64,000 nucleotides of DNA, taken from the NCBI RefSeq assembly GCF_045679555.1, contig NC_092096.1, positions 20,808,688-20,872,687 on the forward strand, written 5' to 3'. Below the pieces are notes generated by a model that did no database searches, was not told the origin of the DNA, and saw only the letters and a list, made by a program, of their open reading frames with translations. The DNA is from Salvelinus alpinus (Eukaryota > Chordata > Actinopteri > Salmoniformes > Salmonidae). The position numbers were made by a program, and so were the translations under genes. Within the stretch, counting starts at the first letter, position 1. The number at the start of each line of letters is the position of its first letter. Below are positions 2,736 through 54,759 of this stretch, one piece after another.

Positions 2736-5700
2736 ATGCAATGTCAAAATCCCAGCGAAAATGGTATTGCGGATTTTTTTTTACTAGATTTGGTGTGCTT
2801 GATGTTCAACATGGCGTATCCTCGCTAAATTTCCGTCTGTCTCGATCTTTTTAGTATGCTAGAAGCGGGAGGACTAGTACTTCTGAATCATCCACTGTTA
2901 TGTTTTGTAAGGGATAGCCTATTTAGATGTTACAAATACCTTGGCAAGCATGTCATGTTTTTTTCCCTTTAACTAAATGAGTTGCTAGATAGGGACCTCA
3001 ATATTTGGAACTAATCTGGTGCGCTTGATTAGTTTGTATGAATGCAGTTTCCACGTTTGGGGCAATTCCATTGGTTTCATTTTGTCTTACAAGTTAAATC
3101 AGGAACCTTGAGGAAATATTTTTAAGGTTTTTGAACCAGCTCTAACTTTCAATATCAGTTCAGTATTATTTCAATTATTATTGCGGCTCATATCCTTATT
3201 TTTAGGTCCCCCTCTTCTTCTTCCCTCTCTGCGTCTCTTCATTCCACCACTGCGGCTTGTCTCTGCAGCCATGTGGCAAGTGGTTCAGCGAGGAGACTTT
3301 CAAGATTATGGGATGCTGGAGGAGTTTGTCACCACGGTGACAGAGATTGTGCCAGAGCTTTTGAGTTGCAGTCAGAGGGCCCAACTCATTCTGGGGCTTC
3401 GAGCAAGGGTAAGAGATTGGGTTCAGAATGGGGGAAAAGAAACATGCAACAAGATCATGTGAGGTTACTCTCTGACAACAATATTGTTGACTCTAGCCTA
3501 AAACAGCCAGCTGTTAAACATTGATTGAGATAAAGACCCTGAAACTGGTTTCTCAAATACTGCCGTTGGCCCTTAGCTAGTCTATCTATCATTATCTCCA
3601 AATGTGTCCCAATAAGAACAGAGCAATGCCTATGAAGCGTGTGGTTGACCTTTTCACTACTCCTGACTGGTCATCTGTAATTTTAGATGGTTCTGGAGTT
3701 GTGTCGCACTGAGCAGACAGCAGACCAAGACATTCAGCAACACCTGGACAGGATCCGAAGCCTCATATCCACTGGGGAAGCAGAGGTGAGTATCTTTCAG
3801 GAAGGGAGCAAAGACCTATGTCACTCAAATTATTTTGTCATTGAGTTGTAAAATGTGATGATTTAATAGTTGTGCGTGTTTTGTTGCAGTCAAGTGATGC
3901 AGAGGTGGAATTATCTGAATCAAACTTTGTGGAGCTGGTTGAATCTCTGCTGAAAGACCCAAGTGAAAGGGAGACCTTCTACCAGGTTTGTGTTGCTCTT
4001 ATATGGTAGGAAAGTGACCACCTCTTTCTGCTTGATTTCCCTATCCAGTTCCATGATTATTTTGGATAAAAAAATAACTCCAGGCTACACTTTAACATAT
4101 AAAACCAAAATAGAAAGTATGTAGAAATAATAATGGACCTATATAATTTCAGATAACTGCCCTTATCTTGACAAACAAAAGCTGTGCGGCCCTCGGAATT
4201 TTGAAACCCCGATGTGGCCCTTGAGCCAAAAAGTTTGCTGGTCTAGGTTACAAAAGGAAAATACTAGGCTAATTATTGATATTCATTATTACATGAATTT
4301 ATTCTCTCCTAGGACGTGTTCCCTGTGAAATTTGGGCCCAAGTATGACACTGCAATACAGATGCTGATGATAGAATTCCTTTCCAGACTTGAGAAGTTAC
4401 TTCCCATACCAGACCTTGAACAGGTAATAAGAATGAATAACACCTTTATCTAATTCGTTTGGGAAATTAGAATTCAAGAATACCAAGCAAGAATCAATAA
4501 TATTTTCATGTTTAATAAACTATGAGTCGGACATGAGTTTGTAGTGAGTTAATGATTTCAAACATGTTCCTCTCTCTCAAGACTGCCTCCTTGTTAAATG
4601 CTGTCCCCTCTGCCCTGGAGAAATGTGTACAGTTTGTACCTGACCCCATACAATTGAGGACCCTGCTCCAATACCACAGAAAACATGGGCGTTTGGACTC
4701 CATCGGTGAGTATCATACAGTCTCAGAGGATCCATAGCAGGTAGCCTAGCGGTTAGAGCGTTGGGCCAGTAACCGAGAGGTTGCTGGTTCGAATATCTGA
4801 GCCGACAAGGTGAAAATCTGTCTTTGCAATTGAGCAAGGCACTCAACCCTAATTTGCTCCAGGGGTGCCGTATTACTATGGCTGACCATGTAAAACAACA
4901 CATTTCACTGCACCTATCTGGTGTATTTGACAATAAAACAGGTTTGTTTTGTGCCAAAATTGCAAATATTTGAAGTATAAGCTTGTTGTACATGATGCAA
5001 ATATGAATTGTGCATCTAAAGTGTAAAATGTAATTTTGTTTTTGTGTTTTTTTGCACAAGTGCTTGATGAATAGTGTCTTGTAAGTCATGGGTTGGGCAC
5101 CAAATGGAATAGGAAACTGAAATTAAATAAATAACAATTATATAAGATTGTGGAAAAGTAATTGACATGTATGACGTTGGTCAAACACTGTTGCAGAAAA
5201 TATATTAATTCAGTTTAACCTGTCTTTTGTCTCCCTCTTGCACAAAAAGAAACTCCATCGTCCTTTGGTGACTACATCCTTTCCTCTCTGTCTCTCCCTC
5301 CACATGTACGTGTGGTGACTGCCACAGAAGTAGATTCACAATCAGAATATTTGGCTAGAGTGGAAGGAAAAGGGTTGGTGGAGGGTACAATGGAGAAAAA
5401 TGGAGGACTACTTGCACCAAATGAGGATCAAAGAGACGCATTTACTGAGAAGGAGCATGCTATGAATAGGAAGCATGTAAGTGGGGAAACGGACAATCAA
5501 GCTGTCACCGGAATTCATGTTCAAACCTCAAAACAAAGCAAAAGGCTGCAGATTAAGAAAATACGGTCAAAAGTACAAAAGACATGTAAAACGGATTCTT
5601 CCGGGAATGCAATCCAACAGCCATCCTCCTCCAAGGTGCATACCTCCCTGAGGAAGTCATGCAAAAGAGGCCAGTTCAGTAAGACATGCCCAGACTGTGA

Positions 5701-7885
5701 GAGGACTTTTGCTCGAGCCACGTCCTTTAGAAGGCACCAGCGAAGCCACACTCAAGATCATGATCATAGGTTTAAGTGCCTCAAATGTGCAATAGGCTTC
5801 AAGGATCTTTATGATCTGAAGAAACACCAGCAGGGAGTTTGTGAAAAGAACCTCTCAACTTTGGTTAATGGGGAAAATAAAGAAGAGATCCCACAACCCT
5901 CAACTAGCAAATCTCCGAACACATCACCCCTTAAGACGCTCTCTCCATCAGGGCTAACACAGAAAAGACCTCTGGACACCAAAACATGCTCTTTGTGTAG
6001 GAGGTTTTTCACTCGTACTTCAGACATGGCAAGGCACATGAGATCCCACTCAAAAGAGCATCCATTTTGGTGTGTAAATTGTGATAAGAGATTCAAGTAT
6101 TCATATGATTTGAAGAGGCACCAGAGAGATTTGTGTAAGAAAGTGAACCAGGAAGATTTAGGTCAGGTTGGTCAAAATTTGTCACAACAGAAGGGGAAAC
6201 CGCAGCCAGAGAAAGATGAATCCCAATCAATGGGTAGCACTGGGTCTCTTGGCACTGATGAAAACCCGCAACCATCTCACAAAGGTCTGTCCGACTCAAA
6301 AACCTGTTGTGTCTGTGGTAGGATTTTGACTCGTACCTCAGACATGGAAAGGCACTTGAAATCTCACTCAAAGGAGCGTCCCTTTCATTGTGCTATTTGT
6401 GAAAGAAGTTTTAAGTACAAAGATACTTTGAAGAAACATCAGGAAATCCTTGGACACGAGGGCATCCTAGAAGACTTGGGTCAGAGTGTGGACCAGCAAC
6501 AAGCGGAAGTTAAAAACGAAGGTTGCAGCAGCCCTCTCACTACCAAGGAAATCGACACTGAGCCCCTTATCACGGCTGCTACTTCAGTGCCGACTCTCAA
6601 AGAACCCAAACCATGCACTGTGTGTGGGAAGATTTTTAACCGTGCTTCAGGAATGGCTATTCATATGAGATCCCATTCAGATGAGCGTCCTTATCAATGT
6701 GGCAACTGTGAGCAGCGCTTCAAGTACATGCATGGTTTAAAGAAACACCAGAGGGATATCTGTCTGAAGGTAAACCAAGAGGAAGCATCTAAGTTGGTGG
6801 ACCAGCAACAAGAGGATGCTACTCCAGAGGAGGCTGGTGAACTGCTAGCCACTGATGACACAAGGGCAGAATGCAAGGAGGAAGAAAGAAAGGTGGTATT
6901 CAAATGTGATGAATGCGACAAAGAATTCAAAGGCTCATCCTCCCTAAGAACACACAAACGAATTCACAATCCATTCTATTGCTCTGATTGTGGAAGGATA
7001 TACCCGAACTCCATTGCCTTTGACAGACACAAGCTGATGCACAAGGAAATCCAGTGTACCATGTGTGAGAAGACCTTTACCCTGTTGGGGCGTCTGAGAG
7101 AACACTATCTGCATCAACATAAATTCGCAGGACCATACGCCTGCTCTCAATGTGAGAAAACGTTCACTCAGTTATCGTACCTTGTCATCCATGAGAGGGT
7201 TCATTCAGGAGAGTACTTGTACCAGTGCTCTGTTTGTCCAGAAAAATTCAGAACAGCCAATTCTCTAACAATACACAGTAGGAAGCACACAGGAGAAAAG
7301 CCGTTCCTGTGCTGGCAGTGTGGAAAGAGCTACCGGGCCGCTTCTGAACTGTCAGTGCATATGGGGACTCACTCAGAGAAGAAACCCTTTTCTTGTTCGC
7401 AGTGTGACATGACTTATCGGACAAAGATTCAGCTGAATACACATATTGAGCAAGTTCATGAGGGGGTGAGATTTACCTGTACAGTCTGTGGAAAGCAGTT
7501 TTACAAAGCAGTGTCATTGAAAAGACATGAACTTACTCACACAGGAGAAAGACCATTTCCATGCTCCTATTGCGAAAAAACTTTCATCACAGCAAATGAA
7601 AGGAGGTTGCATGAAAGATACCATACTGGTGAGCGACCATACAAATGCCAAGACTGTGGAAAGTCCTTCATCCAGTCAGGTTACCTGAAATCACACCAAC
7701 GACTTCACACAGGAGAGAAGCCATTTTCATGCAGCGTTTGTGACAAACGTTTCAGATTTTCTCATCATATGAAAAGGCACCAGAAAACCCATATAGAGAA
7801 GCATGTATGTGGGGAATGTGGAGAATCTTTCACCCAAATTCGATGCCTCAAGGCTCACCAACTCACTCACTCACTCCCTCAATGA
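2736..7885 (+). CDS. Gene A: TINF2_N domain-C2H2 zinc-finger protein, about 1098 aa, 7 exons
   Basis: Predicted exons: 2736-2763, 3206-3408, 3687-3785, 3890-3985, 4313-4423, 4582-4705, 5250-7885. All have GT donors and AG acceptors, phases agree, and the sum is 3297 bp. Residues about 10-220 match the TIN2 N-terminal TRFH-like domain: an AAMWQVVQ motif, a LEEF helix, GLRAR followed by LEL, then EFLSRLEKLLPIPDLEQ. Residues about 366-1095 hold some 20 C2H2 fingers. The first eight form four two-finger modules with spacers, and the second finger of three of these modules ends in Cys (C2HC). The linker and all fingers share one 2.6-kb exon, unlike genes B-D. Probably a nuclear DNA-binding protein; target unknown. 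The exon 1 ATG was chosen because it ends in phase 1 with a G before GT, as in the paralogues. The exon 7 acceptor (ACAAAAAG) is purine-rich and the least certain junction. Confidence 0.82.
4170..4250. mobile_element. hAT-like transposon end fragment in intron 4 of gene A
   Basis: The stretch with GATGTGGCCCTTGAGCCAAA followed by AAGTTTGC resembles the tip of hAT (Charlie-like) elements. It is short, with no partner end found nearby. The match is from memory, so this is a weak call. Confidence 0.3.
4735..4945 (+). mobile_element. tRNA-derived SINE in intron 6 of gene A
   Basis: The head has a polymerase III A box (TAGCCTAGCGGTTAGAGCG) and B box (GGTTGCTGGTTCGAATATC), as in the salmonid HpaI SINE. 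The body and tail (ACATTTCACTGCACC, then a GACAATAAAAC end) differ from classical HpaI, so it is a related subfamily. It lies about 30 bp after the exon 6 donor of gene A and in the same orientation as the gene. Confidence 0.75.
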
Positions 7886-12600: not shown

Positions 12601-14045
12601 GTCCTCATGAAAGCACGCCTGCCCACCAGAAGGGTTCAGGCAATCTTATCTTATTGACCACTTTCGGCAGGGGAAGATGGTATCCGTCCTAACCTGCCAA
12701 CGCCTTTTGGGCTTGCTGACGGCGTCCTCATTGTTGATTCCCCTGGGCCTGCTCTATCTCCGGCCTCTTCAACAGTGGTTCAACTCCCACCAGCTGCACC
12801 CGAAGCGCCACCGTCACCACCAGCTGTGGGTGACCGCACAGTGCCTCTTGGCATCTAGGTGGCGCTGTCACTCCTTTCTCTCAGGTGGGGTGGAGATGCT
12901 GAGGATGTGCCGCCGGGAGCTGATCAGCACAGACGCCTCCCAGTTCGGCTGGGGGGGGGGGGGGGGGGGGGGTGACCAAGGACAGGTCGGCCAGCAGCTG
13001 TTGGCTACCCCCTTGGAGCGGCAGGCACATCAATACACTAGAGCTCCGAGCTGCACTGCAGTCTTTCCTTCCACATCTGAAGGGAAGAAATGTCCTGGTG
13101 AGATTGGACAACACCACAGTGGTGGCTTACATCAACCATCAGGGTGAACTGAGGTCGCACCGCCTCCATCTTATGGCACGGGAGCTCCTTCTCTGGGCTC
13201 AGGGACGTCTAGCATATCTAGCCGTCCCTGAGCGCAGCACACGTACCTGGCATCCTGAATGTGGCAGTGGATATGCTCTCGAGGAAGGGCCCGCCACCTT
13301 GGGACTGAAGCCTACATCCCCAGGTGGAGCAGCACCTGTGGGACAAGTTCGGGAGGGTGCAGGTGGACCTGTTTGCCTCCCTGGACAATGCACACTGCCC
13401 CCAGTGGTACTCCATGTCTGGGCTTGGATGCTCTGGCTCACGATTGGCCAGGGCTGGAGCTTTACGCATTCCCCCCTTTTCCCCTGATCCAGGCTGTGCT
13501 GGACAGGACCAGGTTGGCAGAGCATCGTCTGCTTCTGGTGGCCCCATACTGGCCCAGACGACCCTGGTTCAGCCTTGTTCTGTAGCTGTTGTCTGGGACA
13601 CCTTGGCAACTTCCCCTGAGACCGGACCTGCTGTCTCAGGCCGGGGGAACTCTGTGGTATCCAAGGCCGCACCGCAGTCTGTGGGCTTGGCCACTGAACG
13701 GCACCAATGGTCCATTTTAGGACTACAGGAGGGTGTAATGAACACCATGCAGAACGCAAGGGCACCGGCTACAACCGCGGCATACCAGTTGCACTGGCGG
13801 TTGTTCTGCTCTTGGTGCACTGGTATTGAGGTTGTGCCCGAGTCATGCAGGGTGCAGTATGTCCTCCAATACCTGCAGTCTCGCTTGGATGAGGGCTTGA
13901 CAGCCTCTACATTGAGAGGGTATTTGGCCGCTATATCTGCCTGTCATGTGGGGTAGATGGACAGGCCAGTGGGGCGCCGTCCCTTGGTCTCCAGGTTTAT
14001 GAAGGGGGTTCGTCGTCTGCGTCCAGCAAGGAACCGCTCAATGTA
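9612..14045 (+). mobile_element. DIRS-like (tyrosine-recombinase) retroelement, broken; left end and body
   Basis: Fossil element inside the right end of a Tc1-like transposon. Parts seen in order: left inverted terminal repeat (about 9615-9790), gag-like region (about 10350-11800), reverse transcriptase (about 11990-12650; FVMLDLRN and YLDDWL motifs), RNase H (about 12900-13250) and the start of a tyrosine-recombinase domain (about 13700-13956). The combination of this RT type, inverted ends and a recombinase in place of an integrase indicates DIRS. It is broken by several changes. The right end is not present here but appears at 33072-33568. Long stretches still read clearly, so it is probably fairly young. 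Confidence 0.8.
12951..12972 (+). repeat. Poly-G run (22 G)
   Basis: An uninterrupted run of 22 G inside the RNase H region of the DIRS-like element. Such runs are prone to length error in sequencing and assembly. Confidence 0.9.
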
Positions 14046-14120
14046 ACCTTCGGTATTGTGTAGGTTGTAACATAAAATGTGGAAAAAGTCAAGGGCTCTG
14101 AAAACTTTCCGAATGCACTT

Positions 14121-15123
14121 TAAAAGTTACATATTTGAAAATCTTGATTCCTGACAAGCGAAACATCATCAATGGACTAATTACATATATTTTTTAAGAT
14201 CGTTATTGGGTGTAAATTTCCTTTAAGCTACTTATCATAGTGGGTATATCCAGTCCAATACTTCAAGTATTGTTTTTTCTGTGATTGCTGAACTTTTCAT
14301 TAAGAATGCACTCATTATTTTTATGGTTACATTTCTTTTATTAACCTTTATTTTAATATTGTATGAAACGTGTTGTAGATTATTGTTTTGTCATTTGAAT
14401 TAAATTGACTTTTTTGGCAACATCAGAGGAGTTTATTGCATTATATTAGCATTTGTGAGATGATTCACTGATTACTAGAGACGATCTAGCCAAAGATTTG
14501 TATCACTAAACCAAGATAGACCACAGCCTGTAGTTTCCAATGGGAACAGATGAGTCATAGTAGGAAGAACAAGCAAGGAGGTGGGCAGAGCCAAGCACGA
14601 GATCCTATAGGCCCGTTCTAGCAGACAACTGCATATATCCGTTAGGGAACGCCTACTCTGAAATGCACGTGTGCAATAACTCAAGTCAACTTTTCACTCA
14701 AAAACATCGCGATTAAAAAAAACTTTGACAAAACTTAGGCCACTCTATTCATAACATATTTTAGTTTTGGGAACAGAAAACTGTATTGAGATCAAATGTT
14801 TCATTAATGAGAAAATTTTCAGAATGTAGGCAAATCCATCTCGCTCCATCTTCTCCCATTGCCCGTCAGTGGGCTTCCGAGTGGAAAGGCCAAGCGGATA
14901 TTTATACATCCAGTACCTGTCTCATTGTTCAATCTGTGATATAGCGTTTCCCATGATCGTAACTTTTATTCTGAAGGCGAATATAAACCGGAACTAATGT
15001 TTTTTTTAAGCGACTTCCTGCAAAATGAGAAAAAAATTATAACTTCCAGGTAAACAGATATTTCACCCAAGTGACTAAATGATTGCTTGGGTTTAGTTTA
15101 GGACGTCCCTGTAACTGATAATA
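14121..15123. other. Intergenic region upstream of gene B
   Basis: About 1 kb between the Tc1 right tip and the first exon of gene B. No coding exon recognised. It must contain the promoter and 5' UTR of gene B. The region recurs at 33646-34650 with about 1-2% differences. Confidence 0.5.
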
Positions 15124-33388: not shown

Positions 33389-33431
<43 letters not shown>

Positions 33432-33568: not shown

Positions 33569-33575
33569 TAACCTT

Positions 33576-39843: not shown

Positions 39844-40694
39844 GGATATTGGTGTGTCATTGCTATTCATATGTTGTAGTGTCTTTGGTGGATCATTTGT
39901 TGTTTTTTTGGAAATGTAAAGTAAGACAGGCCATTTGTATTAGAGGCCTGTAACAACAAGAGTTGAGCCTCATACTGTGAATTGTTAATTCTGTCACTGC
40001 TTGGAATTTGATTGTATTTTTGAGATGTGCATTTTTGTGGCCAAGAATCATACATCAAAGGGCATATTCTTTTATTTAGATTACTCACCTTGTTTTGACA
40101 TTAAAAAGAGTGAAGTATTGCGCACCTTCCTTTGCAGAATGAAGAGGACAGTTGCTACTGGTACACAGGCTGGTTGTTCAGAGGCGAGTGCCAGCCCTCT
40201 ACTGTATGTTCAAAACTGAGGGAAAATATGTATTCTCAAATGTAGGCTCGAGTGTTGTCTTTATGGTTGATAAACATAATATTAATCAATCTGCTATCTT
40301 GGTCAATAGACGATACATTATTTCCTTTTCTAAGGCACCCATTTTGGCTCATCAGCACCCCCAGAGGCAAAACTTCTTTATCTTTACTGGAGTATTCCTT
40401 AGGTAATAAAAATAGCGTTGCTTATTTTTGTCTTGCGGTAGGCTACAATATTTTTCAAAAGCAAATCAACTAAAATCTAACAGAGCCATGTTAGTGGTAA
40501 TGTAAGTTGGCAGCTTGGAAGACTTATTCTATGACTTATTTTGGATAAGGTACAGGCGGAAAGAAAATTGAGTCCAGTCTTGGGTACCGGAAGTTTTGGG
40601 GAAGTAGATCGATGTTACTTCGCTCGTTAGGGAGCAGTTAAATAATTTTTGTTTTCAAATTATTCTGCGCTTTTACATAAGTATATTTATAGCC
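39844..40694. other. Intergenic region between B' and C'
   Basis: Second copy of 20301-21151. Nothing beyond presumed UTR and promoter sequence was seen. Confidence 0.5.
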
Positions 40695-43600
40695 ATGGAT
40701 GCATGTGGACTATCTAAAGACATCAATGGTGTGTAAGAAAATAACGTATAGCTAACGATACCATGCTAGCTAATATCTGCAGAACTAATATCAAAAGCCC
40801 CATGGAAAAAGTGGCATAGTTAGCTATCAGTTGAAAGCCGGTTAAAATAGGTTGTTATGACTGCATTGTTAAGCCAAGTGTGCTTGTAATCCTATCTAAC
40901 TAGCTATCAATTTAAAGTAAAGACAATTTGAATAGTAAAGTTATTGCTTAATGCAAATTAATCCTGACAAAGGCTAATGTCTGATGCTACTCTTATATTC
41001 TATGGAGCCCCATCCTTTAACGACTGGATGAGAAATGCATGTCTGCCATCTTTAGCTGACAGACATAATGATATATTACTGCTGTATATATTTTGAACAG
41101 TGTTCTGACTTCTGATTAAATGTTTGTCAATTTGTACACCTACATTTTAGATCCAGTTCTCAGTCTTTCTTCTCTGCACCTCCTGGTTCCACCCTTGCGG
41201 CTCCTGTCTGCTGCCATGTGGCAGGTGGCTCAGCAAAGAGATGTGAGGCACTATGAGAAGTTGGAGGAGTTTGTGACTCTGGCGACAGAGGCCATTCCAG
41301 AGCTGCTGAGCCACAGACATAGAGCTCAGCTCATTCTAGGTCTGAGAGCACGGGTGAGAGACAAGTCAGGGGGCATAGGGTTATTCAGTTGGATGGAGAG
41401 CCCTGAAAAGCGCAAATTAAATATATTGAACAGAAGAGAATTTCCTATGATGATGAGTAGAGAATTGGGTCTGTTCTATACATTATGTAACTGTCTGCAA
41501 TCCTATGAATGGGTACTCCCCACCTGAGTTGATTGAGAGATGACAATGACATGGTTTCCCCAGCTACAGGTTTGTACCACAGTTAATACTTGTTTCTACT
41601 GCGTGTGATTCAGCTGGTTCTGGAGCTGTGCCGAGGCCCTGCCGACCCTCAAACCATCCAACCTTACCTGGACAGAATGCCCACTGTAACTCCAGGATGT
41701 ACAGGAGTAAGTGGGCTACAGTCCTTTTAGAACAGAACTTGGTTGTTTTCCAAGTGGATTTGAGTGCACACAGCCACTATGTGATGATGATTGTATCTGT
41801 TTACTGTCTTGCAGTACAGAGACGCAGAGGTGGAAGCATCTGAATCAAATTTTGTGGTGCTTGTCCAATCACTGCTAAAGGACCCAGTCGAGAGGGAGTG
41901 CTTCTTTCAGGTAATTTTACACTCAGCTCTGTGAGCCTCTTGCAGGACCGCGCTGCTTACGCCAAGGTTTTACTGAAAACAATGGGAGTGTCACGCCCGG
42001 GAAAAGTTACTCATCCAGGCCTTCAAGAAAAAAAGTACTTGAAGTTACAATCCATCACCTTGCCTTAATTTTTAAATAATGTTCCCACAACAGGAGGTGT
42101 TCCCGGAACAATATGGCCGACATTATGACACAGCGGTGCAGACATTAACATGGGAGTTCCTCTCCAGACTGGAACAACTGTTTCCAGTACCAGACCTCAA
42201 GCAGGTATTGAGCAATATGGCATGCATAGCTTTTGGCAATTTACCCTTTCTGATATTGGATGTAGCATAAATCTAGCACAAGTTAGGCATAGTACATTTT
42301 GGGAAGACAAACACAATTCTTTAGGCTACGTTGATTGAATATAAAATGCCTTTCTAAAAGACATTCCCTTTCAGACGGCGACATGGCTCAGCTCTGCACC
42401 TTCAGTCCTGGAGGAGTGTATGCAGTCTACCCCAGAGAATCTGAACCTCATTCTCCAGCACCATAAGAGTTTTGGACATTTAAAAGAACCTTGTAAGTCT
42501 CCTGTAATGATTACCAAATCATGATGCAACGTCTTGTAGTTTAAAACTCGCAGGTCTTTTTATGACACAGTTCTTGTTTTCTCTCGTTCAGCTGCGCTCT
42601 CCTCCTCCATGGGCGACAACATCCTTTCCTCTCTGTCCACCCCTAAAATGGTGGTCACCACTGAGCCGACCACTTTTGTAATCCGGTCAGAGTCGTCACA
42701 TAACTCGGCAGACGTGCTGGGCCCCATGTCTTTAGAGGACACTGATGCGGTAGTGGTAACAGTTTACACTGAAGTGGAGGTTGGAACAGAGGTGGAAGAA
42801 GAGATTGTAGAGACGATGAACGAGGAATACGTACCGTCAAACGCCTCTCCACTGCGGGAGGAGGTGGTTGAACTTAAAGCTGAGGATATGAATCTGGAGA
42901 TGACAGTCGTTGAAGAATATGGCTACGTGGGGGAGGAGATGAGTGCAGCCGAGGAAGAGATGGACACAGTGAGTGTTCCAGTGGAGCAAGCCGATGAAGC
43001 CGTTAATATCAGTGAAGACATTGGAACTGGGACAGAGACTGTAGCAGTCAAAACATATGTCCAAGATGAGGTGGTGGCAGATCAGGACGGCCAATCAGAG
43101 ACTGTGAATGTATGTGTGAACCAGCAAGGGAAGGACACGTCCCATGTGGTCAACTTTCAAACCCAACAACCTGCGACATCAAATGTGAGGCGGTCTACAC
43201 GGCTGCAGTCGAAGACACCAAGAACTTGGAGGAGGAAAAATAACACTGAGAACAAGTATGAGTGATTATAGAATAGGAGTACTGTCGTTTAAAAAGGAAT
43301 CTGCCATTTTGTCATCAAATTAGTGATATTTTTGTTTTTGTTTTTAATCACAGGAAAAACGGTGAGGCCTCAAGCGTGGTTTATGTCATCTCACCCAGGG
43401 GAAGAGAAGCCGGTAATAATGATCTCTCCAACTATTCTGACAGTGACTATTCTGACAGTCATCAGGGAAATGGTTATATACAGTGAAGTTGGAAGTTTAC
43501 ACACACTTAGGTTGGAGTCATTAAAACTCATTTTTCAACCACTCCACAAATTTCCTGTTAGCAAACTATAGTTTTGGCAAGCCAGTTAGGACATCTACTT

Positions 43601-46482
43601 TGTGCATGACAAGTAAGTAATTTTGCCAACAATTGTTTACAGAAAGATTATTTCACTTATAATTCACTGTATCACAATTCCAGTGGGTCAAAAGTTTACA
43701 TTAACTAAGTTGACTGTGCCTTTAAACAGCTTGGAAAATTCCAGACATTCTGTCTCCTAGAGATGAATGTACTTTGTTGTGAAAAGTGCAAATCAATCCC
43801 AGAACAACAGCAAAGGACCTTGTGAAGATGCTGGAGGAAACGGGTACAAAAGTATCTATATCCACAGTCAAACGAGTCCTATAACGACATAACCTGAAAG
43901 GCCGCTCAGCAAGGCAGAAGCCACTGCTCCAAAACCGCCATAAAAAGCCAGACTACGGTTTGAAACTGCACATGGGGACAAAGATTGTACTTTTTGGAGA
44001 AATGTCCTCTGGTCTGATGACACAAAAATAGAACTGTTTGGCCATAATGACCATCGTTATGTTTAGAGGAAAAAGGGAGAGGCTGCAAGCTGAAGAAACC
44101 CATCCCAACCGTGAAACACGGGGGTGGCAGCATCATGTTGTGGGTGTGCTTTGCTGCAGGAGGAACTGGTGCACTTCACAAAATAGATGTCATCATGAGG
44201 AAGGACAATTGTGTGGTTATAATGAAGCAACATCTCAAGACATCAGTCAGGAAGTTAAAGCTTGGTCGCAAATGGGTCTTCTAAATGGACAATGACCCCA
44301 AGCATACTTCCAAAGTTGTGGCAAAATGGCTTAAGGACAACAATGTCAAGTTATTGGAGTGGCCATCACAAAGCCCTGACCTCAATCCTATAGAAAATCT
44401 TTGGGCAGAACTGAAAAAGCATGTGCGAGCAAGGAGGCCTACAAACCTGACTCGGTTACACCAGCTCTGTCAGGAGGAATGGTCCAAAATTCACCCAACT
44501 TATTGTGGGAAGCTTGTGGAAGGCTACCCAAAATGTTTGATCCAACTTAAACAATTTAAAGGCAATGCTACCAAATACTAATTGAGTGTATGATAACTTC
44601 TGACCAACAGGGAATGTCATTCTCTACTATTATTCTAACATTTCGCATTCTTAAAATGAAGTGGTGATCCTAACTGACCTAAGACAGGGAATTGTTACTA
44701 GGATTAAATGTCAGGAATTGTGAAAACCAGAGTATAAATGTATTTGGCTAAGGTGTATGTAAACTTCTGACTTCAACTGTACATATTTACAGTAACAAGA
44801 ACTGAGGGACCAAAATTTGGAGAAAATATGAATGTTTGGAAGATGTATTGTATATTTACATGTCTTTCATTGTGTGGTCTCAAGATATTTTTCAATGAGC
44901 ATGCCCTTTATTTCATTCCCAAGCCATGCAAATAAAACATGCCTTGTCTGACTTCTGTCTCCCAGGTGGATCTGACAAGGTGACCCCCTTTACCTGCCCT
45001 AAGTGTGCCTACCACAGTCTGGAGGAAAAGAGCCTTCACCTGCACATGCAAAGCATTCACACAGAGGAGTACAACAAGCCCAATGTGTCTGGGAAAAACA
45101 GAGCAGAAGTTTCACCATGTCCCGACAACACTCGCCAGATATTCACATCAATCAAACCTCTCCTTTCTTCAAAAACTTTAACAACTGAAAACTCTGAGAA
45201 TCAAACCGGTAATGCTGGGACTCCCACTAAAGCAAAAGGCTACCATAAGGCCCACACATGCGCCACGTGCGGTAGGATCTTCACTCGCTCCTCAGATGTG
45301 AGGAGACACCAGCTCACCCACACGGGTGAGAGACCTTTCCACTGCTCTCAATGCGACAGGACCTTCCAGCATTCGTGGGACCTGACCAAGCATGAGAAGA
45401 AACATGGTGGGACATCTATCTCTTTCCCCTGCCAGAAGTGCGGGAGCTCCTTTGCCAACCTCCGCTCTCTGACAGCCCACCACAGAAGTTCCCACCTGGG
45501 CGAGAGCGACCTGCCCCACCTCTGCTCCATCTGTGGCAAGAGCTTCCCCTCCTCCTCTGAGTTGCTGGAGCACAGGAAGAGCCACGGGACCAGCCTCCAG
45601 TACATCTGCCAGCAGTGTGGCGAAAGCTTCCACTCCCTGCTGGCTCGCTCCCAACACCGGCAGACCCACCTGGTAAAGCGGCAGTTCAAGTGCCCGCACT
45701 GCGACAAGAGCTATACGCGCAAAGCTGATGTGAAGAGGCACATGTTCTCCCACAGCGGCGAGCGACCGCACCAGTGCAACCAGTGTGGGAGATGCTTTTC
45801 CTTCCTCTTCCTGCTCAAGAAACACCAAATAGTTCACACGGGCGAGAGGCCTTTCCAGTGCTCCTACTGTCCCAAGAGGTTCACATTGATATCCATCCTG
45901 AGCAGACATGAGAGAATGCACACCGGGGAGAGACCCTTCCTCTGCTCTCAGTGTGGGAAGAGCTTTCTGTCCCAGGGGGAGCTGTCCAAGCACCACCGCT
46001 CCCACACTGATGAGAGACCGTACGCTTGCAATCAGTGTGACAAGAGGTTTAAGAGCAAAAAATCCCAACAGGAACATATCATCTCCCACACCGGCGTGCG
46101 CCCTTACCCTTGCTCTTATTGTGGGAAAGGGTTCACCAAACCATACGCTCTGACCAGGCACCATCTCATACACACAGGGGAAAGACCATTCCCCTGCGTC
46201 CACTGTGGGAAGACATTTCTCACCCCCGCAGAGGTACAACTACACATCCGCATTCACACAGGGGAACGCCCTTACCCCTGCCCTGATTGTCAGCTGAAGT
46301 TTAGGAGTTCGTCAGACTTGGCACGACACAAACGCTTTCATACAGGGGTGCAGACATTTGTCTGTAACCAGTGTATGAAAAACTTTCCCACCTCGTCCAA
46401 ACTGAAGAAACACATGGAGAACCACTCAGAGACAGAGGCAGTCCAGAGCTCAGACTTTGGAGAAAATTCAAACCAAGTGTGA
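40695..46482 (+). CDS. Gene C': second copy of gene C, about 984 aa
   Basis: Predicted exons: 40695-40728, 41151-41353, 41614-41706, 41815-41910, 42094-42204, 42375-42492, 42592-43255, 43354-43472, 44966-46482. Identical to gene C through exon 8. The finger exon is 6 bp longer, giving two extra residues near the C-terminus (HSETEAVQ against HSEAVQ), and has PDNTRQ in place of PDSTRQ. It carries the same Sleeping Beauty-type insertion in intron 8. Same domain order as gene C. Probably an allele or overlapping contig, possibly a true duplicate. Confidence 0.8.
43481..44779 (+). mobile_element. Sleeping Beauty-type transposon in intron 8 of gene C', better preserved
   Basis: Same TA-flanked insertion as 23938-25230 and 1299 bp long. 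The C-terminal third of the transposase is open at 44285-44581: it starts [18 protein letters not shown] and has [13 protein letters not shown], which includes the last two acidic residues of the DDE catalytic triad. The N-terminal part is broken, so it is still inactive. Confidence 0.9.
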
Positions 46483-47406
46483 AGTAAGGGCAGCAGCACA
46501 ATTGGCAAAAATGGCAGACAATTCATTAAAGTAAATTTACCTTCACAGCTATTATATTCTACAATGTCTCTGTCAAGGAAGATCTTTCAACACCATTAGA
46601 TCTCTAAAATAAGATATCTTGTCAATCTGGCTCATGTCCATTGCAATATAGCTATCAATTATTATTTTGTGTCTGATCAAAGGGAGTTGCAACTCAATCA
46701 TGTCCTTGACCTATTTTATTGTAAAACTGTATATGCTCAGCATCTTAAATGCAACGGGTTTAAACTGTAAAATCAGTGCTATGATCATCCAATTAGTAGT
46801 CAATCAGTAGCTGGTCTATTGGAAGCGCTGGTAAATTAAAATGTTTGTCAACTTTTGAAGAATGTCAAAGATTTGTAAAATGATCTGTTACGTAATGAAC
46901 CAGCCTTAGGTGGATGCCAACTTGTCTCCTTGTCTTTACAGTTCCCAGCACAATACATGTATTTTGTTCTACTTTGTAGCGCTCTGTTTCTCTGACACAC
47001 ATACCAGTAATTAAAATGAAATCAGTTGGGCGGGGGGAACAGGTTAGGCCCATGTAGTGAAAACAATAGGCTTTGAGTAGCTTTGTGCAGAAGATCTGTT
47101 GGATGCCAGTTGAATCATTCCTAGGTGAACTATCCGATGCATTTCCGATGACAGGACCCTTTGTGACGCGCAGCAATTCCAGGATCACTTCCGGATTGCT
47201 CTTCGTTCGTGGCTACAAGCATGTTATTAACTGGTTTACAATTAAATTAGTAAAACATTCGTAGACAAAGCAAACGTAGTGTACACAACATTATTTGCTA
47301 CAATCTGTAGCGTTCAGGAAGGAACCGATGCATTAAATCCCGTCGTCTAACGGGATCCTCCATCTAACTTTTGTAACAACAGTCAGCATTTGGCCCACGC
47401 GACAAA
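46483..47406. other. Intergenic region between C' and D'
   Basis: Second copy of 26928-27852 with about 1% differences. No coding exon recognised. Confidence 0.45.
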
Positions 47407-50400
47407 ATGGACTCGGAATTTTCGGCAACGGACAATGCAGGTATGCAGGCTGTATCTAATAAATGACCATGCAAATATGCCAGCCGCTGCATATACTATT
47501 TGCTACTTGAGTTATTTTGGGGTATGTTCAGCAAGACACCATGTTCACAGCTTGTTTCCAGTCAAAAATTAAGTCCACAGGACCCGAGCAGTACTCGTAT
47601 ATTTCTACAACAATTATGAACATTTGCTCCACTGAATATGCCCCAGTACCCATAATTAAGATGCATAAGCTACATTCAATTACACAAGACTGTTGCGAAA
47701 CGTTATTTAACAATTTCAGAGAATGCACTAGCTATGTTGCAGATTGATTTCAAAATTGTTTACAATGTTCTTTTGAAATACTCTCCAAGCCAATGAAGGT
47801 ACAACACATAACAACGTTTGTGGACACCTGCTCCTCGAACATCTAATTGAAAAGTCATGGGCATTAATATGGGGTTGGTCCCCCCTTTGCTGCTATAACA
47901 GCCTCCACTAGACATCCTGTGAAGGCTTTCCACTAGATGTTGGAAAATTGCTGCGGGGCTTGGTTTCTATTCGGCCACAAGAGCATTAGTGAGGTCGGGC
48001 ACTGATGTTGGGCGATTAGGCCTGGCTCACAGTCGGCGTTCCAATTCATCCCAGAGGTGTTCGTTGAGGTCAGGGCTCAGTGCAGGCTAGTCAAGTTCTT
48101 ACAGACCGTTCTCGACAAACCATTTCTCTATGGATCTCGCTTTGTGCACGGGGGCATTGTCATGCTGAAACAGTAAAGGTCCTAACCCCAAACTTTTGCC
48201 ACAAAGTTGAAAGGACAGAATCGTCTAGAATGTCATTGTTTGCTGTAGTGTTAAGATGTCCCTTCACCTGAACCATGAAAAACAACCCCAGACCATTATT
48301 CCTCCTCCACCAAACTTTAGAGTTGGCACTATGCATTGGGGCAAGTAGCGTTCTCCTGGACTCCGCCAAACCCAGATTCGTCGTTGGACTACCAGAGAAC
48401 GCTCCAGAGTCCAATGGCGGCAAGCTTTACACCACTCCAGCTGACGCTTGGCATTGCGCATGATGACCTTAGGCTTGTGTGCGGCTGCTCAGCCATGGAA
48501 ACCCATTTCACGAAGCTCCCGACAAGCAGTTATTGTGCTGACATTGCTTCCAGAGGCAGTTTGGAACTCTATAGTGAGTGTTGCAAACAAGGACCGACAA
48601 ATTGTACGAGCTATGCTCTTCAGCACTCGACGGTCTCGTTCTGTGAGCTTGTGTGGCCTACCACTTTGCGGCTGAGCTGTTGTTGCTCCTAGAGTTTCCA
48701 CTTCACAATAACAACACTTACAGTTGACTGGGGCAGCTCTAGCAGGGCAGAAATTTGGTGGTGCACGCTAATAGCATTTCAATCGGTGACGTCACTCGCT
48801 CTGAGACCTGAAGTAGTTGTTCCCCTTGCTCTGCAAGGGCCGTGGCTTTTGTGGCGCGATGGGTAACGATGCTTCGTGGGTGACTGTTGTTGATGTGTGC
48901 AGAGGGTCACTGGTTTGAGCCCAGGTAGGGGCGAGGAGAGGGACGGAAGCTATACTGTTACATTGATGCTGTTGACCCGGATCACTGGTTGCTGGCGAAT
49001 AAGGGTGAACGTGGAAAGAGGAAGCTGGCGGATCGTTGGGAGAACGACCTCTATATTGTTATGGAGAAGAATAGTGACAACCACATCTTCAAGATACAGA
49101 ACATGTCGACTGGCCGAGAAAACGGTCCACCGTAATCTGATAATTCCTGTAAACTTCTTGCTTCTCCCTGACACTGCCTTGGAGACACCTAATACGGGAG
49201 ACCGTGAGGATCCGAATGAGGAGATGGAGGACTCATCCATGAACGACATACAAGAAATGGACATTGGTGAGAGGACTAGTGCGGGGGTATCAGAACAGAC
49301 CTCGGGGAAGCACAGCCGGAGCACGCTGAAAAAGAAACCCCAGATGTGCTGGAAGATGGGCCACTGGCGAGGGACCCTCAGAACTCACCACATTCTGAGG
49401 GTGCCACTGGTGGCACAAGCATGTCAGAGCTAACCTTTGGAGAAGAAATGTCCGAACCCTTTGAAGAAGAAAGGCATTCTGAAGATGCCGCTGGTAGCAC
49501 AAGCTCCAGCAACAGTCACCCACGAAGCATCGTTACCCATCGCGCCACAAAAGCCGCGGCCCTTGCAGAGCAAGGGGAACAACTACTTCAGGTCTCAGAG
49601 TGAGTGACGTCACCCGATTGAAACGCTAATAGCGCGCACCACCGCTAACAAGCCAGCCATTTCACATCGGTTACACCACGTTGAAAGTCACTGAGCCTCT
49701 CAGTAAGGCTATTCTACTGAAAATGTTTGTCTATGAAGATTGCATGGCTGTGTGCTAGATTTTATTCATCTGTCAGCAACTGGTGTAGCTGAAATAGCCA
49801 AATTCACTCATTTGAAGGGGTGTCCACATACTTTTGTATATACAGTGTATGCGTTTGACGTTCTGTCTGATTGCACCCTTATTATTCATTTTTCCATGCT
49901 GTTTTAGGTCTCCCTCTCCTCTCCCTCTGCCTCTTGGTTCCACCCATTCAGCTCATGTCAGCGTCCATATGGCAGGTGGTGCAACAGCGAGATGCCATGA
50001 ATTATGCAATGCTGGCGGAGTTTGTCTCCCTGGTGACAGAGATGGTCCCGGAGTTGCTGATCTATAGGCACAGGGCCCAACTTATTTTGGGATTGCGAGC
50101 AAGGGTGAGTGTTACAACCCTAATGAGTGAGTGTAGAGGCATAGATAGAGCCCTGATGTATTCGGATCCCTTTTAGAATCCAAGAGTGGAAGATTTAGTC
50201 TTGTGTAGGCACACTAATTTCAAAACAGTCCCTTTACAAGTCAGAATGTTGAATAAACTTCATTTGGACAAACTTTACCTGTTGTCTGCTGATTTGTATC
50301 CTTATGTCGGAGGTAATCGGTGACCAAATATCCACAGTGAAGTGTTATTAGCCCGACTTTCAGTACGCTGGTCTGTATATGTTTTCAATACTGATGCATG

Positions 50401-53400
50401 GGACGTAAACACCTGCACAATATCTTAACAAGGGCCAAGCATGACCAAACGTTGACAACTTTTCATTTGTAGTATATCGCATGCGGTTCCAGCTGATTGC
50501 GAAGGGGACATGCTTCGGTCGACAACGTTTGGTTACGTTCGGCTATTGTTTGCATATTGTGCATCATGTGCAATGCGTCAGGAGATAGAAAATACAAACC
50601 GTGGAAATGTTATCTTTATTTCCTACTGCCAAAAGGACAACAGCACGGGCAACCGGTGAATTGAGTGTAAATATCATTTTATTCAACATTCTGGCTTGTA
50701 GAGACTACTGCATATTTTTTTGTGCGTCTTTTTCAGATTGAAAAGCCATGGGGTGACCATGGTAACAGTCTGACGTACTATAACTATATAACTAATGAAT
50801 AATGGTTTATGGGGTATGTGTTATTGCAGCACATTCTGGAGTTGTGTCGCAGTGAGCATCCTGTAGAACCTCAGGTCATCTTAACCCAGCTGTACATGAT
50901 TCAACCACTTACCCACTTCAGTAATGATGTAAGTTGATCTTCAATGAATACCTTCTTCCTGGAGGAGTAGACTGGAATAACTGTGGAGTGAAATGCACTG
51001 CTATAGATAAACTATGTTGGACAAATGTGTCCTTATTTGATGTATTCTACAGGTAAGTGACACAGAGGTGGAGTCGTCAGAGACTAATTTTCTGGAGCTG
51101 GTCCAGACCCTGCTTAAAGACCCTGATGAGAGAGAGCATTTTTTCACAGTGAGACTTCATAGAACACATGTCCTCTTGCATTGGATTTACAGGTCAATGA
51201 AGTAAAGTGTTTTTTGCATTGCATTTACCTGTATATTAAATAATGTGGAGGGTTTTCTTCCTCATCTGTGTCCCTCAGGAGATATTCCCAGTGGAGTATG
51301 GACCACAATATGACATCGAGCTGCAGACTCTACTGTGGGAGTTCCTCTCCAGATTGGTTCAACTGTTACCGACCCCTGACCTCACACAGGTGAGGGAAAG
51401 AATACCTTCCATTCACATCTACTGTTTAATAATCATTGTGCAGTACCAGATTAATTAAACTGTGCAAGGAACCATGTGAAGTGGAATATTCAGTAGATAC
51501 ATATCTATTATTTTATCTATCCCCCAGACAATGGCATGGCTTGGTACTGCCCCCTCAGTCTTGGATGATTGTGCCCATGTTATATCTCATCCAGCAGATC
51601 TGAAGAGTCTGCTCCAGCACCATAAACGTCTTGGGCATTTGGAGCAACATGGTGGGTGACACGTAGCAAATGAATGAATCCTATTTTAAAACTGCACATG
51701 GCATACATCCAAATGGATTGACTTTAATTGTAGCATCCTCTCTTTGAACAGTACCCCCCTGCGCCATGGGCGACTGCATCCTGTCCTCTCTCTCCATCCC
51801 GCCACACAGTAGAACGGTGATCAGCACTGAGCAGACCACCTGTGACAACCAGTCAGAACCCTCGCAGGAGTTTGTGGATGACTTCGAGGTGGAAATTGTA
51901 ACTCTGACAGATTATGAAGAGGTTGAATTAGGTTTGAGTCAGGAGGAGGTGGAGGATGGGAACGATGACGAAGGACAGACCATGGAGGACAAGGAAGAAG
52001 AGCCTAAAGAAACGCCCGTTGAAGAAGTGGAGGAAGAGGAGAAAGTGATGGAGGACCATGAAGAGAGGGGCTTGGAGAACAACTCGCATCTAGAAGAAGC
52101 CGAGGATGACCCAGCATCCTCCCATCACCAAACATCCTCTGGGCCACACATCTGCTCAGTCTGTGAGAAGAGCTTCAAGTTTGCCTCTGCACTAATAGCC
52201 CACCAGGTCATCCATACAGGAGAGCGCCCGTATGTGTGCCATCTGTGCGGCCGGTGTTTCTCCTTCAGGCAGTCTCTGGACAGGCACAAACAGACACACA
52301 AGGATGGGCGCGTTTACGACTGCTTGATCTGTGGGGAGACCTTTCAGTCCTTGTCAGCCCGCACAGAGCACAAGAAGAGCCATATGGAGCAAGGCGCTTA
52401 CCAGTGCTCACAGTGCCACAGGAAGTTCAACTGGGCGTCGGCTATGGTGAGACACCTGAAGGCTCACACAGAGGGCACTGAGGTCAAAACGCAGGAACTT
52501 ACAAAAAGCCTGAAGTCTGAGAAAGAGGATATAGGGATTAAAGACATTGTAGGAGAGGTGGCTATTGAACCCCCTGAAACAGACCCGGTGTTGGAGGATG
52601 GAGGGAAATCCTGTCACAATCCACAGGAAGGAGATGGTCAGTTTGGTCAGTCCACTTCGTCTGAGCCTGCAGTGTTGGTGCCTGGACTTCTGGACAAGGT
52701 CGTAACACTTGTCAAGGTCCGTACCAGTGGTAGGAAAACGAAACCGACCTTGAAGGTGCAGATGGTGAACCTGCAGAAGCTCAAAGGAAAGGTTGCCACC
52801 CCAAAGAGGAGGACGGGTGGAAGCTTGATGAACCCCCAGGGTTTCACACCATTGCATTTTAAGAGGTAAAGTAGATGGATGCAGACAGTTTTTAAGGTTA
52901 AATAACAAGTTTGGTATTTTAAGTGAGAAATAAAATGTTACTCAACTGTCATCTCATGGCATTAATACGGGCAATTCCACAGTAACAGAGTGACACTGAG
53001 ACTCAGATTTTTTTACTTTAAAATGTATGTCAAACAAAAAACTAAGTTTGGTAACAGACAGCACAAAATGTCATTCTGTTACCAAACTACTGTTTATCAA
53101 GTAAATGTATCCTTGAAAAATTCTGTGGAAATTGTTCAACGTAGTCCTTGTGCATAGTTGTATGGTTTGTTTAACTTTGCAATCATTGGTTTTTGTTTGA
53201 CATACATTTTCATGTGAAAAATCTGAGTCTCTGTGTCACTTTGTTACCTTGGAATTGCCCTCTACCTACTTGTTTATCTTCAACAGTGAGGAACACTCCT
53301 ATGGCTCACCAGTGGTCTCAACAAAGGAAGGAGATATAGGTACAGATACATGTATTACCTTATTAGTTTTGCATAAGTGTGTAATTGTTTGGTCTGTTGA

Positions 53401-54759
53401 GTGGTTACCTACATGTATTATTTTGTTACATACATTGCTTAAATAATTGTTTGTATCCTGCCCTTATTGAATCCATCAGGTTTTCACTTTTACTTTGTTG
53501 GTCCTTCAGGGTGGTGTCCATTCTCCTGTCCCGAGTGCTCATTCGTCAACTCAGACGAGGCGTCCGTCCAGCAGCATATTGAGACGAACCACTCGGGGGA
53601 AGTACAGGAAGACGCTCTGTCCGCTCCGCACCAAACAGGCCAAGCTGGACACTATGATTGCCCAGACTGTAACAGCAGCTACAAGTTTCAGTCCTTACTG
53701 AAATACCATCGGCGCGTCCACACCGGCGAGCGCCCATACGTGTGCCCTCAGTGCGGACGCCGCTTCTCCTTCAAGCAGTCACTAGAGAGGCACAAACAGA
53801 CACACAAGGATGGGCGCAAGCATGACTGTCTGATCTGTGGGCAGAACTTCAAGTCCTTGTCAGCGTACACAGAGCACAAGAAGAACCACATGGAGAATGG
53901 TGTGTATCGGTGTTCGGAATGCGACCGGCGGTTCTCCTGGAAGTCTGCGCTGGTAAGACACCTCCGGACTCACACGGAGAACGCCACCGAGGCTGAGCTC
54001 TCTTACAAATGCCCAAGGTGTGACTTGGGATTCAGCAGTAGTACGTACCTTAACAGGCACCTGCTCACACACCAAGAGGAGAGGTTGCATGTCTGCAGCT
54101 GTGGCAAGAACTTTGCCTACAAGGCTGCTCTGACCGCACACCAGCGCACCCACCTGAAAGAGAGGCCACACCAGTGCAAGCAGTGTGGAAAGGGTTTCCT
54201 CTACAAGGGAGGGCTGGTAAGTCACATGAAGATCCACTCTGAAGAAATGCCTTTCATGTGCTCATTCTGTGGGAAGAGCTTCAAGAGGGAGAGGAACATG
54301 AAGAAACACGAACGCTGCCACACCAGAGAGAACGTGTTCAGCTGCTCGCAGTGCGACAAGACCTTTGTGTACAAGGCCACACTGACCAGGCACGAGCTAA
54401 CCCACTCGGGGGAGAGACCGTTCCTGTGCTCCGATTGTGGCAAAGGGTTTTTCTCCCATGCGGAGCTTCTAAAGCATGAGCGCTTCCACACGGGCCACAA
54501 GCCGTTCCAGTGCTCCCACTGCGGGAAGCAGTTCACCCAGTCCTGCTACCTGACCATTCACCTGCGCTACCACACAGGGGTACGGCCTTACTCCTGCACC
54601 CATTGTGACAAGAGCTTTCTCAGCGCCAACCGTCTAAAGAGACACCTGAGAACCCACACAGGAGAGAAACCCTACCTGTGTTCAGAGTGTGGCAAAGGGT
54701 TCAAACAGTCATATCACCTCAAGATGCACCAGCAGACTCATGCCACTAAGATTTACTGA
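47407..54759 (+). CDS. Gene D' (complete gene D): TINF2_N-C2H2 protein, about 1025 aa, 9 exons
   Basis: Predicted exons: 47407-47440, 49908-50104, 50830-50928, 51053-51148, 51279-51389, 51528-51651, 51752-52865, 53287-53339, 53510-54759. The sum is 3078 bp in one frame. Residues about 12-220 form the TIN2-like domain. Exon 7 codes for [13 protein letters not shown], a Glu/Asp-rich region and four C2H2 fingers (about 353-465), then a basic spacer ([12 protein letters not shown]). Exon 9 has 14 more fingers. The four fingers of exon 7 closely resemble fingers 2-5 of exon 9, sharing the unusual linker THKDGR and the CLICG finger. Finger 7 of exon 9 has only one residue between its cysteines (HVCSCGKNF). 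Intron 7 contains a MITE. This is the only complete copy of gene D. Confidence 0.88.
47802..49847 (-). mobile_element. Tc1-like transposon in intron 1 of gene D', broken, with nested insert
   Basis: Second copy of 28248-30293 with the same TA flanks, the same broken minus-strand transposase pieces and the same nested insert. Confidence 0.85.
48757..49647. mobile_element. Inverted-repeat insert with Ty3/gypsy-like pol remnant (second copy, fossil)
   Basis: Second copy of 29203-30093. Inverted arms of about 130 bp enclose a broken fragment resembling the C-terminal end of a gypsy integrase. Confidence 0.6.
52969..53260. mobile_element. MITE with about 70-bp terminal inverted repeats in intron 7 of gene D'
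   Basis: A 292-bp unit that begins GGGCAATTCCACAGTAACAG and ends with the mirrored TTGTTACCTTGGAATTGCCC. The inverted arms are about 70 bp long and about 90% alike. The centre has a second perfect inverted pair, GTTTGGTAACAGA and TCTGTTACCAAAC, at about 53047-53091. No coding capacity. Family not identified. Confidence 0.8.

What the first reader, a model, noticed from the sequence alone, without database searches (positions are those of the whole stretch)
2736..54759. A cluster of shelterin-like TINF2_N domains fused to long C2H2 zinc-finger arrays
Seen: genes A-D share an N-terminal domain spread over exons of constant length (203 or 197, 93-102, 96, 111 and 118-124 bp), with motifs AAMWQV, LEEF, GLRAR then LEL, FYQ/FFQ, and EFLSRLE-LLP-PDL. 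Known: the human TIN2 N-terminal TRFH-like domain has the same motif order (AAASWQVV, LEFL, GLKAK then VVEL, FYQQ, LFEYLCQLEKALPTP) and binds TPP1 and TRF2, but human TIN2 has no zinc fingers. Inference: in this lineage a TIN2-type protein-interaction domain was joined to finger arrays and amplified, giving sequence-specific DNA binders that may recruit shelterin partners, or a finger family using this domain the way KRAB or SCAN domains are used in mammals. I recall no published characterisation but cannot search.
Basis: partly seen in the sequence, partly recalled or inferred. Interest (0 to 1): 0.88.

Follow-up and report, generated by a model that had tools for sequence, protein, structure and literature searches.

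The report
TIN2-domain zinc-finger gene family in fish
A fish genome carries dozens of gene copies in which the protein-binding domain of the telomere protein TIN2 is joined to DNA-binding modules, mostly zinc-finger arrays, possibly a fish counterpart of the mammalian KRAB and SCAN zinc-finger families.

Summary
Genes A-D have the stated exon lengths with AG/GT borders and compatible phases, and splice into open frames of a TIN2-type domain plus 20, 15, 15 and 17 C2H2 fingers. All four match Pfam TINF2_N (E 2e-55 to 3e-51). D alone finds human TIN2 (5xyf) at E 7e-12; an eight-sequence profile does at 2.4e-21. The window holds seven such units, because a 19-kb block appears twice at 99.2% identity beside an assembly gap.

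The source genome gives 125 TINF2_N exon matches, a lower bound, 60 of them first-domain exons. Of 28 such loci fetched, 25 have same-strand fingers downstream and none has antisense fingers. Of the other three, one carries Myb/SANT repeats, one shows no known DNA-binding domain, and one is cut short. One of the 25 carries SANT plus fingers.

The domain is under purifying selection; finger contacts vary more than the scaffold. Best reading: a SCAN/KRAB-like adaptor. Shelterin recruitment is possible but untested. No paper found in the library searched describes the family.

The parts
2736..7885 (+). Gene A: provisional exon 1 2736-2763; TINF2_N exons 3206-3408, 3687-3785, 3890-3985, 4313-4423, 4582-4705; single linker plus finger exon 5250-7885 (20 fingers)
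15124..20300 (+). Gene B, first copy: provisional exon 1 15124-15163; TINF2_N exons 15482-15684, 15967-16068, 16166-16261, 16508-16618, 16949-17072; acidic exon 17256-18213; small exon 18431-18489; finger exon 18697-20300 (15 fingers)
21608..26927 (+). Gene C, first copy: TINF2_N exons 21608-21810, 22071-22163, 22272-22367, 22551-22661, 22832-22949; finger frame within 25350-26927. First and last borders set by analogy with the second copy
30354..32971 (+). Gene D, first copy, cut by the assembly gap: TINF2_N exons 30354-30550, 31277-31375, 31500-31595, 31726-31836, 31975-32098; the next exon's frame runs into the gap
32972..33071 (.). Run of 100 N (assembly gap)
35007..39843 (+). Gene B, second copy: TINF2_N exons 35007-35209, 35507-35608, 35706-35801, 36048-36158, 36492-36615; acidic frame 36774-37760; finger frame 38197-39843. 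First and last domain borders set by analogy with the first copy
41151..46482 (+). Gene C, second copy: TINF2_N exons 41151-41353, 41614-41706, 41815-41910, 42094-42204, 42375-42492; acidic exon 42592-43255; small exon 43354-43412; finger exon 44966-46482 (15 fingers)
49908..54759 (+). Gene D, second copy: TINF2_N exons 49908-50104, 50830-50928, 51053-51148, 51279-51389, 51528-51651; acidic exon with the first fingers 51752-52865; small exon 53287-53339; finger exon 53510-54759 (17 fingers in all)
14041..32971 (.). First copy of a 19-kb block, 99.2% identical to 33566-52524; differences are clustered, with identical stretches between them
33566..52524 (.). Second copy of the 19-kb block

Best explanation
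These genes belong to a large family in this fish genome in which the TRFH-like N-terminal domain of TIN2 serves as an adaptor on sequence-specific DNA-binding factors. Shown: the domain, its exon structure, its joining in phase to C2H2 arrays in the window (and Myb/SANT repeats beside the same domain in relatives), its copy number, its constraint, and the greater variability of finger contacts. Inferred: the fingers bind particular DNA sequences, and the TIN2-type domain docks short peptides of a nuclear partner (or pairs with its own kind) to bring an effector there, much as SCAN or KRAB domains do in mammals. The partner may or may not be a shelterin subunit.
For: Full-length TINF2_N matches; human TIN2 is the only credible PDB match; open spliced frames with domain and fingers together; 25 of 28 fetched loci with same-strand downstream fingers and 0 of 28 with antisense fingers; other DNA-binding modules after the same domain: Myb_DNA-bind_4 in L023 and Myb_DNA-bind_4 plus fingers in L034. 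Domain omega is 0.05-0.47 in 13 of 16 pairs tested; of the other three, both block copies of C and of D were identical and the two copies of B gave 0.93 from four changes. Contact dN/dS is 0.45-1.02 against 0-0.48 for the finger scaffold in the 9 of 11 pairs with usable values. In L009 two neighbouring genes differ by 3 of 402 bases in three domain exons but at 28 of 44 contact residues.
Against: No transcript, protein or binding data. No contact dN/dS is clearly above 1, so relaxed constraint explains the variability as well as diversifying selection does. Residues critical for TPP1 binding in human TIN2 are only partly kept. Some loci look decayed: L027 and L029 show stops in the domain as I modelled it, and five of the 25 loci have only 3 to 5 strict fingers.
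Confidence: 0.62

Rival explanations
1. The domain still binds TPP1- or TRF2-type motifs, so these proteins bring shelterin parts to finger-specified sites, at telomeres or elsewhere.
For: The position of E153, needed for TPP1 and TRF2 binding in human TIN2 (PMC8262337), holds Glu in 17 of 29 fish rows, including every window row, L023 and L025. The sequence relation to TIN2 is strong.
Against: F152 is never Phe (W 19, G 5, C 4, I 1 of 29), the A15 position holds a larger residue in all 29, and five rows of one subgroup have Gly at both 152 and 153. None of 286 fingers is GGG-like. A, B1, C2 and D2 hold no [FY]xLxP motif. Searches for the Pfam TPP1 and TRF families gave nothing here but nothing in the controls either, so the presence of partners is untested. 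In telomere pull-downs TIN2 and TPP1 were absent or not enriched in several non-mammalian vertebrates (PMC5309834, passage).
Confidence: 0.2
2. The joined genes are an error of proximity: separate TIN2-like and zinc-finger genes that lie side by side.
For: No transcripts were available. L025 shows that the domain can occur without fingers nearby.
Against: Same-strand order in 25 of 28 loci and no antisense arrays; matching splice phases through all modelled exons in A, B1, C2 and D2. In A and B the exon after the domain holds the family motif D-x-I-L/F-S-S-L-S before its first Met, so that part must be read from an upstream exon.
Confidence: 0.03
3. The cluster is mainly an assembly or pseudogene artefact.
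For: The 19-kb block is repeated at 99.2% identity beside a gap. Some distant pairs of loci give identical scores. L027 and L029 look broken.
Against: Domain dS is 1.37-1.72 in the three pairs of window genes tested (A-B, B-C, C-D), near saturation, and A, B1, C2 and D2 have open frames. The matches listed lie on 13 contigs.
Confidence: 0.03
4. The domain is a self-association module like SCAN, with no effector partner of its own.
For: TRF1 and TRF2 homodimerise through their TRFH domains (review PMC7617103, passages). The SANT-plus-finger order of L034 resembles that of mammalian ZSCAN20/29 (recalled).
Against: The same review describes the TIN2 TRFH domain as binding motifs of TPP1 and TRF2. 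No dimerisation test was made here.
Confidence: 0.12

Closest known systems
Human TIN2 (TINF2), PDB 5XYF
   Same: TRFH-like N-terminal domain: full-length Pfam match to the same model, 22-31% identity in the aligned columns over 29 fish rows
   Different: [quoted passage not shown] these genes carry fingers or SANT repeats after the domain
FiNZ zinc-finger genes of cyprinid fish (PMC10547256)
   Same: An expanded fish C2H2 family with an N-terminal associated domain
   Different: FiNZ is described as unique to cyprinids, and a later paper proposes a common origin with KRAB (abstract starts and passages); the domain here is TINF2_N
SCAN zinc-finger genes, including ZSCAN20/29 with SANT domains (recalled)
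   Same: One N-terminal protein-interaction domain combined with C2H2 arrays and SANT domains
   Different: In the Pfam scans the domain region matched TINF2_N alone, not SCAN
KRAB zinc-finger genes (recalled)
   Same: Tandem clusters, variable finger contacts on a conserved scaffold
   Different: Different domain; I know of no TRIM28-type partner for TINF2_N

Membership tests
TINF2_N domain family (PF14973) | Profile match above the curated cut-off over the whole model | tested here: met
   A-D 174-188 bits against 29.4, positions 1-149
TINF2_N domain family (PF14973) | TRFH-like three-dimensional fold | not tested
TIN2 orthologue (shelterin subunit) | TRFH-like domain without a DNA-binding domain | tested here: not met
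   A-D carry 15-20 fingers
TIN2 orthologue (shelterin subunit) | FxLxP TRF1-binding motif | tested here: not met
   No [FY]xLxP anywhere in the modelled A, B1, C2 or D2 proteins. After the domain they read [32 protein letters not shown]. L025 reads YLLSP there, its homologue L037 SILSS
TIN2 orthologue (shelterin subunit) | Binding to TPP1 and TRF2 | not testable with these tools
   Key residues partly kept
C2H2 zinc-finger transcription factors | Tandem C2H2 fingers in the same frame as the N-terminal domain | tested here: met
   20, 15, 15 and 17 fingers in spliced frames; zf-C2H2 matches in the A and D pieces scanned
C2H2 zinc-finger transcription factors | Sequence-specific DNA binding | not testable with these tools
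   Contact residues more variable than scaffold in 28 of 33 pairs, which are not independent
KRAB or SCAN zinc-finger family | The KRAB or SCAN domain itself | tested here: not met
   Pfam gives TINF2_N alone for the N-terminal region of A-D
FiNZ zinc-finger family | The FiNZ domain itself | tested here: inconclusive
   No Pfam match other than TINF2_N in that region, but whether FiNZ has a Pfam model was not checked

The most novel reading that the evidence does not exclude
A telomere-protection domain was turned into a general targeting adaptor in fish. Dozens of TIN2-derived domains on diversifying finger or SANT arrays recruit shelterin-type or other TIN2-partner complexes to chosen genomic sites, for example to silence mobile elements, in a system parallel to KRAB and FiNZ.
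Probability: 0.2. Interest if true: 0.88.

Novelty: new variant of a known kind. Interest (0 to 1): 0.64.

Why it matters
C2H2 families are usually sorted by their N-terminal domains (KRAB, SCAN, ZAD, FiNZ). A TIN2-type domain in that role would link telomere biology to the radiation of DNA-binding factors. It may also mislead shelterin annotation in fish, since most of the TINF2_N loci read here carry fingers and are not plain TIN2. The work gives a testable set: genes with fingers, with SANT repeats, with both, and with no DNA-binding domain seen.

Tried and rejected
TRF1-binding motif: L025 has YLLSP just after the domain, which looked like a canonical TIN2 with a docking motif. Its homologue L037 has SILSS at that place, and L025 is no closer to human TIN2 than the finger genes are (26.1%, range 21.7-30.6%), so I do not claim either as the true tinf2.

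Telomeric target: no finger with R(-1), H(3), R(6) among 286; a crude test that counts duplicated copies more than once.

Partner genes: Pfam TPP1 and TRF searches found nothing here and nothing in the controls, so they say nothing.

Positive selection: contact dN/dS reaches about 1 but not clearly above it. Two of eleven pairs gave no value because of saturation. Contact residues differ more often than scaffold residues in 28 of 33 pairs; of the other five, two pairs (block copies of B and C) have no difference at all, one is equal, and two have scaffold changes only.

Tree: the places of L025, L023, WinC and WinD are unresolved, and human TIN2 is a long branch. It holds 29 fish rows. Left out: L027 and L029 (broken frames), two duplicate window units, and rows identical to another; L035 and L037 were not added. 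Exon borders for L033, L034 and L036 were set roughly.

Block duplication: I compared the start of the second contig with the window to see whether it overlaps the first copy's left flank. Outside the block it matched only itself and short repetitive stretches, so false duplication and real tandem duplication remain open.

Splice borders of the SANT stretches in L023 were scanned but not settled. In one search the eight short search loci L001-L008 were printed too; L005 and L006 show two fingers on the printed minus strand because those two minus-strand loci were not turned; they are not among the 28.

Full report
What is there. With downstream exons included, four genes splice into open frames that end in a stop. 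A runs from a provisional exon 1 for 1098 aa with 20 fingers, and B1 likewise for 1098 aa with 15. C2 and D2 run from exon 2 for 952 aa with 15 fingers and 1013 aa with 17. In A one long exon carries the linker and all fingers. In B, C and D an acidic exon, a small exon and a finger exon follow the domain, in matching phases; in D the acidic exon already carries four fingers. A strict finger pattern occurs 86 times on the window's plus strand and never on the minus strand.

What the domain is. All four domains match Pfam TINF2_N over the whole model at E 2e-55 to 3e-51. The human TIN2 segment scores about the same on that model (190.9 bits). A single fish sequence (D) finds human TIN2 (5xyf_A) in the PDB at E 7e-12 over 166 residues. 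A profile of eight fish domains finds it at 2.4e-21, with nothing else below 0.38. Identity to human TIN2 is 22-31% across 29 fish rows. This is homology, not a chance motif order.

How many copies. The window is part of an unnamed 2.37-Gb genome in 928 contigs; the size and the mobile elements suggest a salmonid (inference, no name was given). The family search lists 125 TINF2_N exon matches on 13 contigs, a lower bound since 150 of 196 candidates were scored; I count 60 as the first domain exon. I fetched 28 loci around such exons: 20, 4 and 4. Seven more units lie in the window, so 35 of the 60 were looked at, plus a short piece at one more (L037); some fetched stretches overlap, and the choice was not random. 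Of the 28, 25 have C2H2 motifs downstream on the same strand, 20 of them with six or more and 5 with three to five; none has C2H2 motifs on the other strand. The exceptions are L023, L025 and L035. L035 ends before its later domain exons and cannot be judged.

Other architectures. L023 follows the domain with repeated Myb/SANT-like domains: the three tested score 62-65 bits to Myb_DNA-bind_4, and seven such stretches were picked up by a pattern; their splicing was not settled. L034 has one Myb_DNA-bind_4 (E 4e-20) and then a finger array. L025 has no C2H2 motif within 10 kb and no Pfam match in its C-terminal exon. A search with that exon finds one homologue, on C11, read as L037 with a 267-aa open frame there; L037 was not scanned for domains. 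The domain thus sits beside at least three kinds of sequence. That is how a shuffled adaptor behaves, and it recalls SCAN-SANT-finger proteins of mammals (recalled).

A shared motif. Just after the domain, 29 of 38 rows (some rows are the same gene seen twice) show D-x-I/V/L-L/F-S-x-L-S; nine show no clear match. In A and B it lies before the first Met of its exon, which argues that the exon is read from upstream. It stands where a TRF1-binding FxLxP motif might be looked for, but only L025 reads YLLSP and its homologue L037 does not; A, B1, C2 and D2 hold no [FY]xLxP at all. The motif's role is unknown.

Selection. Of 16 pairs compared over domain exons 2, 4, 5 and 6, 13 show omega 0.05-0.47; the older pairs, including those among the window genes, show 0.12-0.26. 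The two copies of B in the block give 0.93, from four changes only, and the copies of C and of D are identical. In the fingers, contact positions differ more often than scaffold positions in 28 of 33 pairs, which are not independent, and contact dN/dS is 0.45-1.02 against 0-0.48 for the scaffold in the 9 of 11 pairs with values. In L009, two neighbouring genes have three domain exons that differ by 3 of 402 bases but differ at 28 of 44 contact residues, as if new finger arrays were paired with a homogenised front end. The dN/dS values do not clearly exceed 1, so relaxed constraint is not excluded.

Shelterin or not. In human TIN2, A15R, F152A and E153A abolish TPP1 binding (PMC8262337, passages and section 8). 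In the 29 fish rows, E153 is kept in 17, F152 becomes W in 19 and is never F, and A15 is M, V, L, F or T. The window rows all keep the Glu. This neither proves nor excludes TPP1 binding. None of 286 fingers shows R/H/R contacts for GGG. In telomere pull-downs, TIN2 and TPP1 were absent or not enriched in several non-mammalian vertebrates (PMC5309834, passage).

The window's assembly. 14041-32971 and 33566-52524 are 99.2% identical, and a 100-N gap follows the first. Differences cluster: six successive kilobases show no mismatch, while one shows 35. This may be an unresolved haplotype, a recent tandem copy or gene conversion. It doubles B and C and gives one cut copy of D, but the window genes themselves are old paralogues (dS 1.37-1.72 in the three pairs tested, near saturation).

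Literature. Full-text searches of the held open-access library for TINF2_N with zinc finger, TINF2 with zebrafish and C2H2, TIN2 with TRFH and fish, salmonid C2H2 expansions, TERF1-interacting nuclear factor 2 with fish, the Pfam and InterPro accessions, shelterin with teleost, and TINF2 with teleost returned nothing on this family, judging by titles and abstract starts. The FiNZ paper (PMC10547256) and the KRAB-like/FiNZ paper (PMC11603059) do not contain the word TINF2 in their main text (passages only were seen). Most subscription papers are not held, and automatic database entries for this architecture may well exist (recalled), so I claim only that no characterisation was seen.

Verdict. 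A real, sizeable and apparently uncharacterised family: a known kind (C2H2 genes with an N-terminal partner domain) in a new variant (a TIN2-type domain, also found with SANT repeats). The step from architecture to function is inferred.

Noticed in passing
window 14041-32971 and 33566-52524: A 19-kb block repeated at 99.2% identity beside a 100-N gap, with clustered differences; either false duplication or a recent tandem copy.
   Followed up: partly
L023 (G000:C11:31755911-31765910, minus strand): TINF2_N exons followed by repeated Myb/SANT-like (Myb_DNA-bind_4) stretches instead of fingers; splice borders of these not settled.
   Followed up: partly
L034 (G000:C26:9361015-9370014, minus strand): TINF2_N, one Myb_DNA-bind_4 domain and a C2H2 array in order.
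   Followed up: partly
L025 (G000:C31:17897753-17907752) and L037 (G000:C11:54029900-54032299): Two homologous genes with the domain; no DNA-binding domain was found in L025, and L037 was not scanned. Exons 5 and 6 are contiguous in both. Candidates for the true tinf2, unproven.
   Followed up: partly
C37:13.97-13.99 Mb (L009, L011, L012) and C11:31.59-31.61 Mb (L013, L014, L017): Two similar arrays with near-identical domains but two kinds of finger array, as if finger arrays were exchanged behind a homogenised front end.
   Followed up: partly
window 57074-57655, minus strand: Frame with an Exo_endo_phos match, probably apex1 (name recalled); human APEX1 and TINF2 both lie on 14q (recalled).
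   Followed up: no
window 8859-9368 (minus) and about 10294-13950 (plus): Tc1/Sleeping Beauty-like transposase piece (HTH_SB and Tc3_2 matches) and a retroelement-like stretch with a weak RVT_1 match, next to the block's left end.
   Followed up: no
window 43500-44790: A Tc1-like stretch lies in the intron before the finger exon of C (judged by eye).
   Followed up: no
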